DNA of 64,000 nt from Streptomyces uncialis. Lineage in GTDB: Bacteria; Actinomycetota; Actinomycetes; Streptomycetales; Streptomycetaceae. Positions 4,076 through 11,871 of this stretch are shown here, piece after piece. Positions within the stretch are counted from its first letter, which is position 1. Each line of letters starts with the position of its first letter. The DNA lies in NCBI RefSeq assembly GCF_001905345.1, contig NZ_LFBV01000001.1, forward strand, positions 445,321-509,320, given 5' to 3'. The position numbers were made by a program, and so were the translations under genes. The notes below the pieces were generated by a model that worked only from the letters and a program-made list of their open reading frames with translations, was not told where the DNA came from and did not search any database.

Positions 4076-4495
4076 CGTGCGCTTCCTTCTGCTTCTTGCC
4101 ACGGCGCTGTTCCACCGCGCCCACCAGGACCTGTCGACGGCCCGGTATCCGAACCTTGGCACCCGGGGCCGCGATCCGTCCGCGAAACACGCCAAGGTAC
4201 GGCGGCCCGGCATCACCCTCCGCACGGATGTGCCCGGCTGGGCGAACGGCGTGCCGCGCTGGCCACCGTCGGACCGGGCCGGGAGCGGCGTCGCCGAGGC
4301 CCCCGCGGACACGAGGCCCGTGCCCGCGACGCCCCGGCACACCATGGCGGGCCGGATCGGATCGCGCCGGTCCGAGTCCGTCGCAGTCCGTCGGATCGAT
4401 GGACCCCGGACGGGACCCGGCGGCAGGATGGGTGGCGGGCGGCGCGGCGGGTGCCGCGCGGCACGGTCCGGGTGCGGACGGTTCAGGGGGCGGTC
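4076..4495. other. Intergenic region between divergent csp and Crp/Fnr genes
   Basis: This 420-bp gap must hold promoters for both genes and probably a long 5' leader for the cold shock mRNA, as is common in the family. I see no strong palindrome for a Crp-type site and no credible ORF. Confidence 0.4.
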
Positions 4496-5209
4496 ATGGG
4501 TACGGCGACGGGGCAGTGGCCCGCGCGGAGTCTGCTGGGGGTGCTGGCGCCGCCCGCGCGCGCCGAACTCCTCGCCCTGGGCTCCCGGGTGACCTTCCAG
4601 AAGGGCGCGCCACTGCTGCGCGAGGGCGGGCCGGACCGCCATCTCCTGCTGCTGCTCACCGGGTTCGCGAAGGTCACGGCCGCCGTGGAGAACGGCGAAC
4701 GCTCGCTGCTCGCCGTGCGGGTCGGCGGTGACACGGTCGGGGAGATGGCCGCGCTGGACGGCTCCTCGCCCCGGTCGGCCACGGTCACCGCCTGCGGGGA
4801 GATGACCGCGCGTACGGTGCAGCCCGCCGCCCTGCACGAACTGCTCAAGCGGCGCCCCGAGATATCGCTCGCGCTCGCCGTGATCGTCGCGAACCGGCTG
4901 CGCTGGGCCAACCAGCGGCGCCTCGAATTCCGGGGCTACCCGGTCAAGGTCCGGCTCGCCCGCATCCTCGTGGAGCTGGCCACCGCGTACGGGCGCCGCA
5001 GCGAGGGCGGTGTCGTCATCGGCTGCCGTCTCACCCAGCCCGAACTCGCGGACCTGACCGGCGCGGCCGAGACCACGATCCACAAGGCGCTGCGCGATCT
5101 GCGCGCCGAGGGACTGCTGGAGTCCGGCTACGGCTCCACGACGATCAGCGACCCGGCGGGCCTGCGGCACGCGGCCGACCTGGGCCCGGACCCCTGGCCG
5201 GTCCTGTAG
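4496..5209 (+). CDS. Crp/Fnr-family transcriptional regulator
   Basis: A 237-residue protein. Residues about 10-125 form a cyclic-nucleotide-binding-like beta barrel, with [21 protein letters not shown] matching the phosphate-binding cassette position (G-E-x-A, then R-S-A). Residues about 145-225 form a winged helix (HTH_Crp), with [20 protein letters not shown] as the recognition region. The Arg and Ser in the cassette leave cyclic-nucleotide binding possible, and no Fnr cysteine cluster is present. The ATG at 4496 follows AGGGGG at 4484-4489. It reads away from the csp gene and towards the convergent PycTM-like gene. Confidence 0.9.
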
Positions 5210-5425: not shown

Positions 5426-6205
5426 TCAGCCCAGCAGCGGGCGGAGCACGATGCCCAGCCCCGCCGCCGCGCCCATCACGGCCGTGCACACCACCGCGCC
5501 GCTCAGACAGCGGTACTTGACCACCGCGACCCGGGCCAGGAAGGCGAGGGTCTGCGCCAGCTCCCGCCGGTCGGCCGCCGGATCATGGTCCGGTACGGCG
5601 TCCGGGGCGGCGTCCCCGGTGCCGCCCCCGGCGGCGTCACCAGAGCCGTCCGGCGAACCGGCCGGGGCAGCCACGGAGCCGGATCCCGGGGCAGCCACGG
5701 CGTCGGCGGCGGAGCCCGGGGCACCCGAGGCGACGGAGGCCGTACACGCGTCGGAGGCCGTACGCGCCGCGCGGGCCATCCGCGCGGCCAGGCTCGTACG
5801 CGCTACCCGGGACGTACCGCCGCCCCCCGCACCCGTCCCCGCACCCGCCGCCAGATACGCGAAGCTGTACCGGTTGACGCCCCGGGGCCGCAGCAGCCGG
5901 GGCCGCAGCGCCGCGCCGAGAGCGCCCGCCCCGCCGAGCAGCCCGGCGGCGAACAGGAACAGCAGCAGCCCGGCCAGGGCCCCCGCCGCCCCGCCGTCCC
6001 GCCAGGCGCCGGCGGCCGTCCCGGTCCATAAGTCGCACGTGCCGACGAGGGCGACCTGGGCCGCCGCGAGGATGCCGGTCTTGGTGTCGGCCTGCTGATG
6101 GGTGCTCTGGAGCGCGGCGAGCATCGTGGGTCCCGGCCCCCCGGGGACCTCGACGACAGCGGTGTGCGGGGCGGGCAGGTCCGCCGGACGGGTGGTGAGC
6201 GTCAT
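5426..6205 (-). CDS. PycTM-like (DUF5706-type) membrane protein, candidate conflict-system effector
   Basis: A 259-residue protein from the ATG at 6205 (AGGGGG upstream). The order of elements matches the PycTM effector domain of Pycsar systems: an amphipathic helix with QQADTKTGILAAAQVALVG (residues 37-55), a hydrophobic segment at about 75-100, the linker ALRPRLLRPRGVNRYSFAYL, and a C-terminal helix ELAQTLAFLARVAVVKYRCL followed by a last membrane segment. In known Pycsar systems such proteins damage the membrane on sensing cCMP or cUMP. An Ala/Gly-rich insertion of about 85 residues before the last helices is unusual. The gene diverges from the cyclase-like gene at 6516. The family call rests on pattern recognition, not on a search. 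Confidence 0.7.
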   Translation of the reverse strand: MTLTTRPADLPAPHTAVVEVPGGPGPTMLAALQSTHQQADTKTGILAAAQVALVGTCDLWTGTAAGAWRDGGAAGALAGLLLFLFAAGLLGGAGALGAALRPRLLRPRGVNRYSFAYLAAGAGTGAGGGGTSRVARTSLAARMARAARTASDACTASVASGAPGSAADAVAAPGSGSVAAPAGSPDGSGDAAGGGTGDAAPDAVPDHDPAADRRELAQTLAFLARVAVVKYRCLSGAVVCTAVMGAAAGLGIVLRPLLG

Positions 6206-6277
6206 CCCGTGTTCCCCCTCGGTGACGGTGCATGTCCGTCCAGTAACCGGCATTCCCCCGGGGCCAACCAGTCACTT

Positions 6278-6515: not shown

Positions 6516-7367
6516 ATGACAACGATCGCAGGCGGACCCGGCGGCCTGGACACATTCGGCCGCAGACTGCTGCTGGCCGTCGACGCGAAGGGGTACGGCC
6601 GGGCCGACGTGCTCACCCAGAGCTGCTTCCAGGAGGCGATCCCCCAGCTCGTCGGCGTGGCCGCCCGTGCGGCCGGTGAGGACATGGCCGCGTGGGCGGT
6701 CCAGCAGGCGGGTGACTCGGTCATGGCCGTCCTGCCGGAGGGCGCGTCCGAGCCCGCGATGGTGGACACGTTCATGCGCCGGCTGGACGCCGGGCTGCGG
6801 GCCTTCAACCACGGCCGGGTCCGGGACTCCTGGCTGGAGCTGCGGGCCGCCCTGCACTTCGGGACGGCGTCCCCGGGGGCCAACGGCTTCGTCGGCCGCG
6901 CCCCGGTCGAGATCGGCCGCCTCCTCGACAGCCGGGTGCTGCGGAGCGCGCTGGCGGCGGCCGAGGACGCCCCGCTCGCCGTCGCCGTCTCCGCCACCGT
7001 CTTCAACGACGTAGTGCGGGAGGCGTACACCACCGTCCGCGCCCGCGACTTCCTCCAGGTGCGGATCGAGGAGAAGGAGTACGCCGGGCGGGCCTGGATC
7101 TGGGTGCCCGGCCATGACGTGCACACCCTGGGGCTCGACGCCCCGGCCGCCCTGGACGCGGTGACAGGGACGCGGGACGCGGACGTACCCGCTGCTCCCG
7201 CGCGGTCCGACGACCTGCCCCGGTCCGCTCCGGGGCACCGGTCCGACGCTGCGGGCCCGTCCGGGTCCGAAGCGGACGACACATCAACGGCGGTGCGGGA
7301 AAGGGTGGTTCAGAATTTCCATGGAACCGTCCACGCTTCCGGCGCCGTCTTCGGGATCTCCAAGTGA
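6516..7367 (+). CDS. Class III nucleotidyl cyclase-like protein with C-terminal shared motif
   Basis: A 283-residue protein. Residues 17-205 resemble a class III adenylate/guanylate cyclase fold: LLLAVDAKGYGRAD carries the first metal-binding Asp (D23), QQAGDSVMAVLP the second (D67), then LRAALHFG and FVGRAPVEIGRLLDS. The last element replaces the usual Asn-x3-Arg of active cyclases, so catalysis is uncertain; Pycsar uridylate/cytidylate cyclases share this fold. A flexible linker follows (about 206-255). Residues 256-283 carry VVQNFHGTVHASGAVFGI, closely similar to a segment in the next protein. The ATG at 6516 has AGGGG 5-8 bases upstream. The next gene starts 20 bp after the stop, or overlaps if its first ATG is used. 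Confidence 0.7.
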   Translation: MTTIAGGPGGLDTFGRRLLLAVDAKGYGRADVLTQSCFQEAIPQLVGVAARAAGEDMAAWAVQQAGDSVMAVLPEGASEPAMVDTFMRRLDAGLRAFNHGRVRDSWLELRAALHFGTASPGANGFVGRAPVEIGRLLDSRVLRSALAAAEDAPLAVAVSATVFNDVVREAYTTVRARDFLQVRIEEKEYAGRAWIWVPGHDVHTLGLDAPAALDAVTGTRDADVPAAPARSDDLPRSAPGHRSDAAGPSGSEADDTSTAVRERVVQNFHGTVHASGAVFGISK

Positions 7368-7386
7368 CATCGAGCGACGGCCTGGA

Positions 7387-10113
7387 ATGACAGAGCACGA
7401 TGACGAGCCGCGTGAGCGGCGACAGCTTCCGCTTCCCGCCCCACCACTCCACAACCGACGCGAGCCCCAGTCGTGGCCCGCTCCCCTCCCGGGAGCCGCG
7501 CCCGTCCCGCAGCCGCGTACCCCGCACCCACCCGCGACCTCACCACCCGCGTCCCCACCACTCGCGTCCCCACCACCCGCGACCCCGCACGCCGCCGGGG
7601 CCGACCGTCCGGGCGCCGTCCGCCGGGTCATCCGGCTCGGGGACCGCCCCGACCCCGCCCGCACACCCGACCCCGCCCGGACTCCCGACCCCGCCCGCAC
7701 ACCCGACGCCCCCGGCCCGCCGGACCCCGCCGACGGCGACCGCCGCACTCCGGGGAGCCCCGAGGACGACCGCCGCACACCGGGAGGTCCCGCCGGTGAC
7801 CGGTCCACGCCGGGGAGCCCCGACGACGACCGCCCGCCCTCCGACCCGGCCCCCGACGGCCCCGGCCCCACCGACCCGCCCGGCCCAGGACCCGCCGGCA
7901 CCGACCCACCACCCACCGACCCACCACCCGCCGACCCACCACCCACCGAGAATCCACCGCCACCCGGGGACCCGAGTACCGCGCCGTCCGGGGACCCGAG
8001 TACCGCCGCACCCACCGACCCCCGGTCCGCCACCGACCCCCGGTCCGCCACCGAGCCCCGGCCCGCCACCGACCCGCAGACCGCCGTCCACCAGAGCAAC
8101 GTCAGCCAGTACTTCTACGGCTCCGTGGCGGCCCCGCACGCGCACTTCGGTATCGGCGGGAGTGCCCCGGGTGCCGCCGGGGGCCGCCGCCGGGCCACCG
8201 GGTGGCTCGACGCCCAGGAGGTGGACGGCCTCCTCGCCTCCTACGTACGTCCCGCCTGCTTCCCGGACACCGCGCGGATGCTGGAGAAGGACAGCGTGGT
8301 CGTCCTCGTCGCGCAGCCCGGCACCGGCAAGCGTTCCGGCGCGGTCGCCCTGCTCGACGCGGTCGCCGAGAGCGGCACGGGCGGCGTCGGCGGACCCGCC
8401 GAGTACGTCGTCCTGTCCCCGGACCTCGACCTGCGCCAGCTCGCCGACCGTACGTTCACCGCGGGCGTCGGCTACGTCCTCCTCGACCGGATGGACGAGG
8501 GCCGCGCGGGCACCGCCGACTTCGACTGGCGGCGGGTCCGCGACCAGGTCCGCGCCCAGGGCGCCCATCTCGTCGTCACCACCGTGCACGGCGCCGGGGA
8601 GACCGCCCCGGAGGCCGTCCATCACGCGCTGTGGCGGCCCCCCGACCTGGCGGACGCGCTGCGGCTGCGGCTGCGCAAGGCCGGATGCGGCGACGACACC
8701 GTCGACCGGGCGGTCCGGGGACTGCCCGCCGGATGCCGGATCGCGGAGGTCGCGGCGGCGGCGGGGCGGATCTGCGCCGGGTCCGACCCCGACGACGTAT
8801 GGCGGGAGTACGGCGACAGCGCGTCCCGGCCGGTCCGCGACTGGTTCGCCGAGGACCGCACGCTCCAGGAGATCGCGGAGGTCACCACCCTCGCCTTCGT
8901 CACGGGGGCGGGCCGCCGGGCCTTCGAGTCGTACCAGGAGCTGCTGGAACCCCGGCTGGAGCAGGAGTTCCCCGGGCCACCGCCGCCGCCCCCCGCCAGG
9001 GACGGCGACGACGACACCACGGAGGCCCGGCCCCGTCCCGACCGGACCCGCCCCGACCGCCGCCGCCCCGACCGCCGCCGCTCCCTCGCCCGCAACGCGC
9101 TCGTCACCACGGAGGAGCTCTCGGGCGGTTCACCGGTGCGCACCGCGCTCGTCTTCCCCGGTCCGCAGTACCGGTCCTGGGTGCTGGAGGAACTGTGGGA
9201 GAACCACTCCACCGCGTACTGGGACGGGGTCCGCGACTGGCTCACCGCACTGGTCGGGCTCATACCCGAGGCCGCCCTGTGGATGTCCGTCTCCTCGGGC
9301 CTCGCGCTGCTGGCCCGGCCCGCCTTCGAGGAGGTCTCCGGCTGCTATCTGCACCCCTGGGCGAGCGGCGCGGAGGGCCCGGCGGCGCAGTCCGTGGCGG
9401 TCCTGGTGCTGTGGTGGATGAGCCAGGACGACGCGCTCGACGCCACCGCCCTGACCCTCGCCCGGGGCTGGGCCCAGTCCGCCGACCCGGGGCTGCGCAG
9501 ATCGGCCGCGCTCGCCTTCAGCGGTCCGCTCGGGGTCCGCTTCCCCACCGACGCCGTCAAGCGGCTCTGGACTCTGACCGGGAAGGACGCGGAGACCTCG
9601 CTGCACGCCCGGCTCGCCCTCGCCAACCTCGTCGTGGCGCTGGTGGAGAGCGGGGAGGACGCCGGTGTCGTCCTCGATCTGCTGGTGTACCGACTGGGGC
9701 TCCAGCGCCGCAAGGACGCCACCGACCGCACCAAGGGAGTCACGTTCCGGGCCGCGCTGGAGGTGCTGACCGTCCGGGTGGCACGCACCCGCTGCCCGGT
9801 GGTCGCGGTACTGACCGCCGAGCAGCCGGGGTTCCGGCCCAAGCTGGCGGAGCTGTGGGCGGCCGTCCTGTGCAACCGCCCGCTGCGCGGGGACGCCCTG
9901 CGTTCCCTGCGGGCCGCGCTGCGCGCGCTGCCCCAGGTCGGGGAGAACCCGCTGGACGTGGCACGGGAGTTCGGCGCGAGCGTGGGAGCGGCGCTCCCCC
10001 CGAACGAACGCGAACTGCTCCACCGCGTCCTTGAGCCCCCCGCCTCCCTCGCCCCGGAACCGACCGCCCTCACCCACACCTTCCGCGCGGCGCTCCTCTC
10101 ACCCGCCCGGTAG
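7387..10113 (+). CDS. P-loop NTPase of STAND-like type with proline-rich N-terminus
   Basis: 908 residues from the ATG at 7387; an alternative ATG at 7321 would overlap the cyclase-like gene. Residues 1-230 are a disordered Pro/Asp/Thr-rich tract with DPARTP and DPRSAT repeats. Residues about 235-260 read SQYFYGSVAAPHAHFGIGG, matching the C-terminal motif of the preceding protein. A P-loop domain follows: Walker A VAQPGTGKRS (about 308-317) and Walker B-like GYVLLDRMDEG (about 360-370). The C-terminal 450 residues look alpha-helical and are not recognised; they could be a sensor or repeat region. The context suggests the regulatory NTPase of a conflict system. The exact NTPase clade is uncertain. 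Confidence 0.65.
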   Translation: MTEHDDEPRERRQLPLPAPPLHNRREPQSWPAPLPGAAPVPQPRTPHPPATSPPASPPLASPPPATPHAAGADRPGAVRRVIRLGDRPDPARTPDPARTPDPARTPDAPGPPDPADGDRRTPGSPEDDRRTPGGPAGDRSTPGSPDDDRPPSDPAPDGPGPTDPPGPGPAGTDPPPTDPPPADPPPTENPPPPGDPSTAPSGDPSTAAPTDPRSATDPRSATEPRPATDPQTAVHQSNVSQYFYGSVAAPHAHFGIGGSAPGAAGGRRRATGWLDAQEVDGLLASYVRPACFPDTARMLEKDSVVVLVAQPGTGKRSGAVALLDAVAESGTGGVGGPAEYVVLSPDLDLRQLADRTFTAGVGYVLLDRMDEGRAGTADFDWRRVRDQVRAQGAHLVVTTVHGAGETAPEAVHHALWRPPDLADALRLRLRKAGCGDDTVDRAVRGLPAGCRIAEVAAAAGRICAGSDPDDVWREYGDSASRPVRDWFAEDRTLQEIAEVTTLAFVTGAGRRAFESYQELLEPRLEQEFPGPPPPPPARDGDDDTTEARPRPDRTRPDRRRPDRRRSLARNALVTTEELSGGSPVRTALVFPGPQYRSWVLEELWENHSTAYWDGVRDWLTALVGLIPEAALWMSVSSGLALLARPAFEEVSGCYLHPWASGAEGPAAQSVAVLVLWWMSQDDALDATALTLARGWAQSADPGLRRSAALAFSGPLGVRFPTDAVKRLWTLTGKDAETSLHARLALANLVVALVESGEDAGVVLDLLVYRLGLQRRKDATDRTKGVTFRAALEVLTVRVARTRCPVVAVLTAEQPGFRPKLAELWAAVLCNRPLRGDALRSLRAALRALPQVGENPLDVAREFGASVGAALPPNERELLHRVLEPPASLAPEPTALTHTFRAALLSPAR

Positions 10114-10260: not shown

Positions 10261-11871
10261 ATGACCGACACGTACCCCCTTGTGGAACAACGGGTGTACG
10301 GCCGCCCCGGCCGGCGCCGGGGCCTCCTCACCAGCCGGCCCACCCGCGCCGACGACGAACTGCCCCTGCTCGCCCCGCACCACGTCCGCGTGTTCCGCAC
10401 CGGCGAGGACTACATCGCGGACCCCGGACGGCTGCACGCCGACGACCCCCTGGTCGTCACCGCGTCATCCGTGACGGTCGTCAACTGCCGCGTCGGGGTC
10501 CCCGTCGTCGTGGAACTGCCCGTGCCCTCCGCCGACCAGGGCTCCTTCACCGCGCGGATCACCTTCGACTGCACGGTCGTCGACGCCCCCTCCGTCGTCC
10601 GCGACGGGGTCACCGACGTCCATGAACTGCTGCTCGGCTACCTCCGCTCCGTACCGGGCCTCGTCGAGGACGGCGCCGACCAGCCCATCGGGGAGACCAC
10701 CGGGACCCGCGACCGTATCGACGCCCGGCTCACCGGCTACCAGGAGATGACCTCCGACGTGGTGTCCGGGCTGCGGATCGTCGCGTCCGGCGTCGAGGTG
10801 CTGACCCCGGAGGAGTTCGCGGCCCATGTCGAGGAGGTCAAACGGGCCCGGCTCGCCGCCGACAAGGCCCGGGTGGAGGCCGAACTCGCCGCCCAGCAGG
10901 CCAGGGCCGAGCACGAGCAGCGGATGCGCGCCGAGAAGCAGCGCATCGAGGCGGCCCGCGAGGAGGAACGGCACCGCGCGGAGCTCGCCGCCCTGGAGGA
11001 GCGCCACCGGCAGGAGTTCGAGAACATGCGCACGGTCTACGAACAGGCCGCGGGCAGCCGCACCCAGGAACACGAACTGCTGCTCCAGGCCCGCGCCAAC
11101 GGCTTCCAGCGCAACCAGGCCCATGAGGACATCACCTCCGTCGGCGACGACCCCGTCGCCACCGACTTCCTCGCCCTGCGCAGCGGCGGACTGACCGCCG
11201 CCGAGATCGCCGAACGCCGCCGCGCCGACGAGGAACGCCGCGACACCAGGGCCGAGGAGGTCGCGGCCCTGCAACGCGAGTACCTCGCCAAGCGCGAGGC
11301 CATGGACCGGGACGACGCCCGCGCGCAGCTCGAACGCGACGACCGCCGCCACGAACTGGACCGGGAGGACCAGCGGACGGATGCCACGGCCGACCGCGAG
11401 GAGCGTTCCCGCCGCTGGTTCCAGCGCCGGGAGGACCGCGAACGGCGCCGTCTGGAGAACCGGGAGGACGCCCGGACACAGCGCCAGGAGCACCAGGAGT
11501 GGCGCGACCGGGTCCTCAAGGTCCAGCACGACCTGACCGCCCGCGCGATCAGCCGGGGCCACGGCGACGACCGGCCGGTCGACGTCGGCGCGCTGATCTC
11601 CAACGTCGGCGAGACCCCGCAGCCCGGGGTGCAGGCGCTCACCCAGGGCCGGGACGACGAGGTCCAGCGGGTCACCGCGGAACGCCTGGACCGCGCCACC
11701 GACGACGGCCCCTACGCGGCGGCCGCCGCCGTCCCCGCGGACCCCGCCGAGCCGCGCGCCGCCGGAGCCCCGGCCCCCGACCCGGTGACCGCCCCCGACG
11801 ACCCGGAATCCGACTCCGACGACGACTCCGACATCGGATTCGCGGGACTGGAGGAACGCCGTGGCGACTGA
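10261..11871 (+). CDS. SPFH/band-7-like protein with long charged coiled coil
   Basis: A 536-residue protein; RBS AAGGAA lies 7-12 bases before the ATG. Residues about 40-185 look like a PHB/SPFH fold: FTARITFDCTVVDAPSVV followed by a short helical block and SDVVSGLRIVASGVEVLTPE, as in stomatin-like proteins. Residues about 190-430 are a highly charged Glu/Arg/Ala coiled coil. The last 100 residues are acidic and Pro/Ala-rich, ending in a DSDDDSD cluster. No N-terminal membrane anchor is present. It overlaps the DUF4407 membrane protein gene by 11 bases, so the two are probably translated together and may form one membrane-bound assembly. Confidence 0.6.
   Translation: MTDTYPLVEQRVYGRPGRRRGLLTSRPTRADDELPLLAPHHVRVFRTGEDYIADPGRLHADDPLVVTASSVTVVNCRVGVPVVVELPVPSADQGSFTARITFDCTVVDAPSVVRDGVTDVHELLLGYLRSVPGLVEDGADQPIGETTGTRDRIDARLTGYQEMTSDVVSGLRIVASGVEVLTPEEFAAHVEEVKRARLAADKARVEAELAAQQARAEHEQRMRAEKQRIEAAREEERHRAELAALEERHRQEFENMRTVYEQAAGSRTQEHELLLQARANGFQRNQAHEDITSVGDDPVATDFLALRSGGLTAAEIAERRRADEERRDTRAEEVAALQREYLAKREAMDRDDARAQLERDDRRHELDREDQRTDATADREERSRRWFQRREDRERRRLENREDARTQRQEHQEWRDRVLKVQHDLTARAISRGHGDDRPVDVGALISNVGETPQPGVQALTQGRDDEVQRVTAERLDRATDDGPYAAAAAVPADPAEPRAAGAPAPDPVTAPDDPESDSDDDSDIGFAGLEERRGD

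What the first reader, a model, noticed from the sequence alone, without database searches (positions are those of the whole stretch)
7281..8163. Shared amyloid-like signalling motif between cyclase-like C-terminus and NTPase N-terminus
The last 25 residues of the cyclase-like protein (VVQNFHGTVHASGAVFGI) and residues 240-258 of the NTPase (VSQYFYGSVAAPHAHFGI) align as V-x-Q-x-F-x-G-x-V-x-A-x-x-A-x-F-G-I, preceded by TAV in both. Both sit at the ends of flexible linkers in adjacent genes. This is the arrangement of bacterial amyloid signalling sequences (BASS) that couple NLR-like NTPases to effectors by prion-like templating. The exact sequence may be a new BASS class.
Basis: partly seen in the sequence, partly recalled or inferred. 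Interest (0 to 1): 0.92.

Follow-up and report, generated by a model that had tools for sequence, protein, structure and literature searches.

The report
Receptor–cyclase pair sharing amyloid-like tag
Two neighbouring genes in a Streptomyces-like bacterium, one resembling an immune-type sensor and one resembling an enzyme that makes cyclic nucleotides, carry the same short tag, and many related bacteria have such pairs with differing but matched tags, which suggests that the sensor switches the enzyme on by prion-like contact; none of this has been tested at the bench.

Summary
The motif pair is real. Alone it is barely above chance: 918 of 20000 shuffles score as well. Relatives make the case. 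Cyclase genes of this family (profile A1) occur in 153 of 245 genomes of the order. In 114 testable genes the cyclase tail matches a neighbouring gene at z>=6 in 47, against 3 of 342 controls; in 46 of the 47 the partner is the next gene. The motif differs between loci yet is matched within the locus in most, not all. A receptor-side profile searched through the whole genome at E<=0.05 finds its own gene and the cyclase C-terminus only.

The 'cyclase-like' protein has a class III cyclase fold with both metal aspartates. The partner is a P-loop NTPase with helical repeats, elsewhere an AAA/TPR protein. Crp-like and PycTM-like genes lie alongside.

Best reading: a STAND-type receptor seeds an amyloid-like assembly that clusters and activates a cyclase feeding PycTM and Crp. 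Amyloid, direction and product are inferred. A 2021 review names BELL, CHAT and TIR as partners of such bacterial motifs. New variant of a known kind.

The parts
4451..5209 (+). Crp/Fnr-like cyclic-nucleotide-binding regulator
   Evidence: Pfam cNMP_binding 4.8e-15 and HTH_Crp_2 2.4e-14; Crp-like gene within 3 genes upstream to 5 downstream in 92 of 115 loci
5426..6253 (-). PycTM-like (Pycsar effector) membrane protein, divergent; my gene caller starts it at 6205
   Evidence: PADLOC PycTM 4.6e-6; Pfam PF18967 9.7e-6, 26.4 bits against a cut-off of 27.2; PycTM-like gene in 61 of 115 loci
6516..7367 (+). class III nucleotidyl-cyclase-fold protein (g1); core about 12-200, then a tail of low model confidence
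   Evidence: AF2 mean pLDDT 82, core mostly above 90, tail about 50; VIA Z 17.1 to 3mr7, 16.9 to Ma1120, 14.8 to the cUMP synthase 7r65; catalytic Asp kept
7305..7358 (+). effector-side motif VVQNFHGTVHASGAVFGI
   Evidence: profile A4; found by the receptor-side profile
7387..10113 (+). P-loop NTPase with helical repeats (g2); alternative start 7321
   Evidence: AF2 mean pLDDT 89 for 8161-10110; nSTAND3 0.0036, below cut-off; Foldseek best SAMD9 3.8e-5 with low TM-score 0.26, Avs4 1.4e-3; VIA: helical-repeat rows for 221-643, AAA+ rows for about 10-223
8101..8154 (+). receptor-side motif VSQYFYGSVAAPHAHFGI after a Pro-rich linker
   Evidence: profile A5; hhalign with A4 94%, 1.3e-7
10261..11871 (+). 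coiled-coil-rich protein of the same gene row (g3)
   Evidence: no Pfam family at cut-off; same position in L039-L041
11861..13222 (+). DUF4407 membrane protein (g4)
   Evidence: Pfam PF14362 5.6e-59; in 24 of 115 loci

Best explanation
The two segments are the two halves of a homotypic, amyloid-signalling-like coupling tag. The NTPase/HEAT-like protein acts as a STAND-type receptor. On sensing a trigger it oligomerises, and its N-terminal motif nucleates a beta-rich assembly that recruits the like motif at the C-terminus of the cyclase. Class III cyclases build their active sites between two subunits (general knowledge), so clustering would switch the enzyme on. The cyclic nucleotide would then act on the PycTM-like membrane effector and the Crp-like regulator encoded alongside. 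Shown here: the motif pair, its cognate matching across many loci and motif variants, the cyclase fold with conserved metal aspartates, the NTPase-plus-repeats model, and the gene neighbourhood. Inferred: amyloid structure, templating, direction NTPase to cyclase, catalytic activity and product, and a role in defence or regulated death.
For: Tail-to-neighbour matching: z>=6 in 47 of 114 genes against 3 of 342 control neighbourhoods, z>=8 in 34 against 0. Of the 47 the partner is the next same-strand gene in 46, and the match ends within 40 residues of the cyclase C-terminus in 45; 44 partners are 650-1787 aa with the match near the N-terminus, two are 148-aa proteins matched near their C-terminus, one is a 77-aa protein on the other strand. 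Of 80 genes with an NTPase next, 56 have P<=0.05 against NTPases of loci with core identity under 45%, and 51 beat every one of them. 42 dereplicated loci: mean z 4.97 for cognate pairs against 0.58, 0 of 10000 permuted pairings as good. The tag varies with the locus also behind homologous receptors: the 1787-aa (L043) and 1766-aa (L090) AAA/TPR-type proteins are 59% identical, yet each carries the motif of its own cyclase; a third case is the 1750-aa TPR protein of L175. In 12 class-A loci the mean identity is 0.73 in the last 20 residues and 0.34 in the linker. In 53 next-gene pairs at z>=5 the matched segments are poorer in Pro and richer in Gly, Val, Phe, His than the linkers. Asp23 in 116, Asp67 in 117, Arg135 in 116 of 118. 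On a plasmid relative the record calls the neighbours Crp/Fnr regulator and 'Pycsar system effector family protein'.
Against: No amyloid assay or amyloid predictor was run. The window pair alone is near chance. 24 of 80 NTPase-next genes do not reach P<=0.05; of 42 dereplicated loci only 21 reach z>=3, 13 lie under 2, and non-cognate pairs reach z>=6 in 20 of 1722, partly because loci share a motif class. Loci with a ~230-250-aa or ~1460-1515-aa next gene show no clear match. The canonical catalytic Asn is Val in the window (N in 51, V in 46 of 118), so activity may be low or altered. The NTPase Walker A Lys is Arg in 25 of 45 and Lys in 15 (Lys in the window). The NTPase domain's VIA rows are AAA+ ATPases such as TRIP13 (Z about 10) and PAN (9.5), not a STAND protein, and Foldseek TM-scores are low, so 'STAND receptor' rests on weak sequence hits and architecture. 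The PycTM Pfam score lies just below its cut-off.
Confidence: 0.52

Rival explanations
1. The matched segments are ordinary docking peptides (a non-amyloid homotypic beta-strand or small oligomer) that merely hold receptor and cyclase together in a stoichiometric complex.
For: Nothing here distinguishes amyloid from other homotypic pairing; the segments are short (median ungapped length 27 residues over 53 pairs) and lie in a tail of low model confidence.
Against: Similar, not complementary, sequences on both partners, Gly-rich and Pro-poor, in many unlike variants, is the pattern described for amyloid signalling motifs (PMC7889193, passages).
Confidence: 0.25
2. Signal runs the other way, or the cyclase is only a regulator: the cyclase-fold protein senses or binds a nucleotide and, through the tag, controls the NTPase/repeat protein, which is the executioner with the membrane proteins.
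For: The catalytic Asn is replaced in 67 of 118, Walker A is atypical in many NTPases, and g3 and DUF4407 genes follow the NTPase.
Against: Both metal Asp and the Arg are nearly invariant, and cyclic-nucleotide readers (Crp-like 92, PycTM-like 61 of 115 loci) sit alongside.
Confidence: 0.2
3. Coincidence or leftover duplication: the two segments resemble each other by chance or because a short piece was copied once, without joint function.
For: Window pair alone: 918 of 20000 shuffles as good.
Against: Recurs in many loci with different motifs, matched within the locus, and better conserved than the linker.
Confidence: 0.03

Closest known systems
BASS (bacterial amyloid signalling sequences) in NLR/BELL gene pairs
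   Same: Similar short motif at the C-terminus of an effector and the N-terminus of an NTPase receptor in adjacent genes of filamentous actinobacteria
   Different: Effector is a class III cyclase fold, not BELL, CHAT or TIR as the review lists (PMC7889193, passages); most partners here are ~700-aa NTPase/repeat proteins; membership in BASS1-10 untested
Effector-associated-domain conflict systems (Kaur et al. 2020, 2021)
   Same: The closest design in print that I saw: a cNMP cyclase (infrequent) or protease fused to the same EAD or bDLD3 as stands at the N-terminus of the iSTAND2 NTPase (PMC8195603, passage); cNMP cyclases and Crp-like regulators in related systems (PMC7159879, passages)
   Different: Those adaptors are folded domains, as I recall; here a segment of about 20-30 residues of low model confidence. 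Relation of this NTPase to iSTAND2 untested
Pycsar (PycC + PycTM/PycTIR)
   Same: Class III cyclase fold, PycTM-like membrane effector next to it, structural match to BcPycC 7r65 (Z 14.8)
   Different: No PADLOC PycC match; adds an NTPase with a shared tag and a Crp-like regulator; product unknown
STAND/NLR-type sensors (Avs, SAMD9)
   Same: P-loop NTPase followed by helical repeats; Foldseek lists SAMD9 3.8e-5 and Avs4 1.4e-3
   Different: TM-scores are low (0.26 and 0.20 by query); the effector is a separate protein; trigger unknown
Fungal amyloid motifs (HET-s, sigma, PP, PUASM)
   Same: Receptor/effector motif pairs; the sigma peptide in PMC8086366 ends NFYGSVQF, resembling QYFYGSV by eye (section 13)
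   Different: Resemblance is short and untested for homology

Membership tests
BASS / bacterial NLR-associated amyloid signalling | Shared motif, C-terminus of one protein and N-terminus of receptor, adjacent genes | tested here: met
BASS / bacterial NLR-associated amyloid signalling | Receptor is an NLR-type STAND NTPase with repeats | tested here: inconclusive
   Window: nSTAND3 0.0036 below cut-off, P-loop NTPase + helical repeats by model with weak matches. L043: AAA_16 and nSTAND5 hits below cut-off, TPRs well above
BASS / bacterial NLR-associated amyloid signalling | Effector carries BELL (less often CHAT or TIR) | tested here: not met
   Class III cyclase fold
BASS / bacterial NLR-associated amyloid signalling | Motif matches one of BASS1-10 | not testable with these tools
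   BASS profiles are not held
BASS / bacterial NLR-associated amyloid signalling | Motif forms or seeds amyloid | not testable with these tools
   bench assay needed
Pycsar | Class III cyclase fold with both metal Asp | tested here: met
Pycsar | Protein recognised by PADLOC PycC models | tested here: not met
   P0001: 0 families at E<=0.1
Pycsar | PycTM or PycTIR effector adjacent | tested here: met
   PADLOC PycTM 4.6e-6; Pfam 0.8 bits below cut-off; 61 of 115 loci
Pycsar | Makes cUMP or cCMP | not testable with these tools
   residue 4 before the second Asp is Q (54 of 118), A (28), E (19); product not predictable
Effector-associated-domain (EAD) conflict systems | The shared adaptor is one of the described EAD or bDLD domains | not tested
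   P0001 and P0005 had no Pfam hit at their termini, but EAD profiles were not compared one by one

The most novel reading that the evidence does not exclude
A widespread actinobacterial family of signalosomes in which STAND/NLR-type receptors switch on second-messenger cyclases by templated amyloid, with many sequence-unlike, cognate-matched motif classes acting as an insulation code between paralogous pathways: a receptor-to-amyloid-to-cyclic-nucleotide relay feeding Pycsar-type effectors.
Probability: 0.42. Interest if true: 0.9.

Novelty: new variant of a known kind. Interest (0 to 1): 0.75.

Why it matters
How Pycsar-type cyclases are switched on is open: the authors of PMC11224242 write that whether oligomerisation of PycC acts as another activation mechanism needs further study (passage). 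[quoted passage not shown] A receptor and a cyclase joined by a matched tag, in many variants, makes both questions directly testable and offers natural tag pairs to test for orthogonality.

Tried and rejected
Considered and set aside: chance similarity (although the window pair alone is weak); 'TAV precedes both' as part of the motif (out of register, not seen in orthologues). The NTPase set drifted into the cyclases and is not used; one search replaces it for the NTPase, while its Crp, PycTM and DUF4407 sets are used (no overlap of Crp or PycTM with the cyclases). In one search, 10 of 67 NTPases of loci with core identity under 45% score as well with the window tail as its own partner, run over all next genes, lists 10 such and 9 of them carry the AAFGF/AVFGF-type motif (L123 does not). 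Dropped before counts: 6 of 121 sequences gave no cyclase; 4 of 118 cyclase genes had no testable tail or neighbour; 8 of 118 were outside the next-gene tests (110 left). My gene caller missed or truncated some partners (for example L046), which lowers the cognate counts. NTPase model: the top VIA rows are eukaryotic helical-repeat proteins (residues 221-643), with AAA+ rows for the N-terminal part. Phages: no match to P0001. Genome contigs gave one named relative, Streptomyces sp. NBC_00620. Nonomuraea gerenzanensis keeps the gene row by eye, but its motif match is weak by eye. Amyloid predictors were not available.
Full report
The observation. The cyclase-like gene (g1, 6516-7367, +) ends in VVQNFHGTVHASGAVFGISK and the next gene (g2, 7321 or 7387 to 10113, +) holds VSQYFYGSVAAPHAHFGI at 8101-8154, after a long Pro-rich stretch. 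Taken alone the pair is weak: 918 of 20000 shuffles reach its ungapped score, and its own partner ranks 4th of 42 for the window tail. The TAV before both is one residue out of register and not seen in the orthologues printed.

Relatives. Searching g1 in 150 same-genus genomes gave matches in 86; a profile of 11 g1 cores (A1) matches 153 of 245 genomes of the order at E<=1e-8, and at E<=1e-10 60 of 296 of the class (20 of 114 genera) and 9 of 296 of the phylum. I fetched 120 loci, chosen from the upper part of the hit lists and so not a random sample, called genes with my own codon-position script, and found 118 g1 genes in 115 of 121 sequences, window included.

The paired-tag test. For 114 g1 genes with a usable tail I aligned the tail to every gene within 7 kb and normalised by shuffles. 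The best z is >=6 in 47 of 114, against 3 of 342 control neighbourhoods taken from loci with core identity under 45%; z>=8 in 34 against 0. Of the 47, 46 point to the next same-strand gene and 45 end within 40 residues of the g1 C-terminus; two partners are 148-aa proteins matched near their own C-terminus, one is a 77-aa protein on the other strand. After dereplication at 70% core identity (42 loci) the cognate mean z is 4.97 against 0.58, with 0 of 10000 permuted pairings as good; the true partner ranks first in 15 of 42 and in the top three in 23, but 13 of 42 have z under 2. Among 80 genes whose next gene is the NTPase, 56 have P<=0.05 against NTPases of unrelated loci and 51 beat all of them; 24 do not reach 0.05. 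Several loci below z 4 show a visible match by eye, such as the GDKxV tails of L143 and L148.

Many motifs, mostly matched. By eye the matched motifs fall into many unlike classes: AVFGI (window), AVFGFG, GDQHGVSGGQVTGDV, FGSGDAARTMHKKYYG, VGEGAAIMGNVGRDF, SAIVVGNGGNA, GGAAAQGPGA, GVGVNHG, GQAGGTHHGDQ. The receptor can change type: in L043 the partner is a 1787-aa protein with AAA_16/nSTAND5 hits (below cut-off) and TPRs. Its homologue in L090 is 59% identical, yet each carries the motif of its own cyclase. On a Streptomyces sp. NBC_00466 plasmid the annotated row is Crp/Fnr, Pycsar effector family protein, hypothetical protein (g1), TPR protein, with FVQNVSGGTGIQAENATLTI against YVQNVGPDGWGVQSTNATINV.

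The window class. Profiles of the two sides (A4, A5) match at 94% and 1.3e-7. A5 found 10 of 150 genomes at E<=0.05; in the own genome only g2 and the g1 C-terminus. One of the ten (G107, E 0.0275) is a weak hit that I did not follow. A4 in the own genome found g1 (9e-15) and nothing else better than E 1.04. In 12 class-A loci mean identity is 0.80 in the core, 0.34 in the linker and 0.73 in the last 20 residues.

The proteins. A1 as a profile hits Ma1120 adenylyl cyclase in the PDB set at 9e-5. The AF2 model of g1 has a confident core and a tail of low confidence; VIA gives 3mr7 Z 17.1 (rmsd 2.6, 164 aligned), Ma1120 16.9, BcPycC 14.8 (rmsd 2.8, 173 aligned). Asp23 is kept in 116 of 118, Asp67 in 117, Arg135 in 116; the canonical Asn position is Asn in 51 and Val in 46, as in the window. 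The roles of these residues are from general knowledge of class III cyclases. The g2 model (pLDDT 89) is a P-loop NTPase followed by helical repeats. Foldseek lists SAMD9 and Avs4 with low TM-scores; VIA lists helical-repeat proteins for the C-terminal part and AAA+ ATPases (TRIP13, PAN; Z about 9.4-10.5) for the N-terminal part. Walker A Lys is Arg in 25 of 45 and Lys in 15.

Neighbourhood. Of 115 loci, 92 have a Crp-like gene, 80 the NTPase, 61 a PycTM-like gene and 24 DUF4407 within three genes upstream to five downstream; the NTPase is the next gene in 79. The Crp, PycTM and DUF4407 sets come from iterated profiles. Four PycTM members were scanned by Pfam: two pass the PF18967 cut-off, one lies just below (25.7 against 27.2 bits) and one has no hit.

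Mechanism. The like sequences on both partners, their place at the ends of low-confidence linkers, their Pro-poor, Gly/Val/Phe-rich make-up (from aligned segments, so biased towards alignable residues) and the receptor/effector gene order are what amyloid signalling predicts. Class III cyclases work as dimers (general knowledge; PMC11224242, passage), so clustering is a plausible switch. Direction, activity and amyloid state are not shown.

Literature. Seen as passages: PMC8086366 (section 13 whole), PMC12261475, PMC7159879, PMC8195603, PMC9815663, PMC7889193, PMC11224242. Dyrka et al. 2020, which defined BASS, was not read. Kaur et al. 2021 already describe cNMP cyclases sharing an EAD with a STAND NTPase (passage), so a receptor-to-cyclase link as such is not new; the short amyloid-like tag is the difference. 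Searches pairing amyloid signalling or amyloid with cyclase or Pycsar showed no title or abstract start describing it (15 of 56 papers listed, 2 of 3); the library lacks most subscription journals.

Noticed in passing
G000:C6:22166-22756 (L078) and G000:C11:502576-503160: Two further g1-type cyclases in the same genome (one search lists C6, both); the C6 copy has a ~715-aa gene next to it and a different tail (VGEGIALMGDVGRDLTYTGG).
   Followed up: partly
L059 11153-11386 (+): A 77-aa protein with two motif-like segments, one like the cyclase tail of that locus and one GPVVAG-type; could be a bridging adaptor.
   Followed up: no
L045 (G085:C73): Class-A-like cyclase with motif, but no NTPase called between it and the DUF4407 gene; perhaps a decayed row or a gene-calling miss.
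   Followed up: no
L053, L054, L055, L110, L118: A subgroup with a like tail (SQYVHQG...G..VGL type) but a ~230-250-aa next gene without a clear matching segment; partner unknown.
   Followed up: partly
L060, L064, L077: Matched motif lies inside g1, followed by a further C-terminal segment, not at the end.
   Followed up: no
L044, L087, L089: Next gene is a ~1460-1515-aa P-loop-like protein; only a short, weak match (VxAxGxVVGIxI) to the tail in two of the three.
   Followed up: partly
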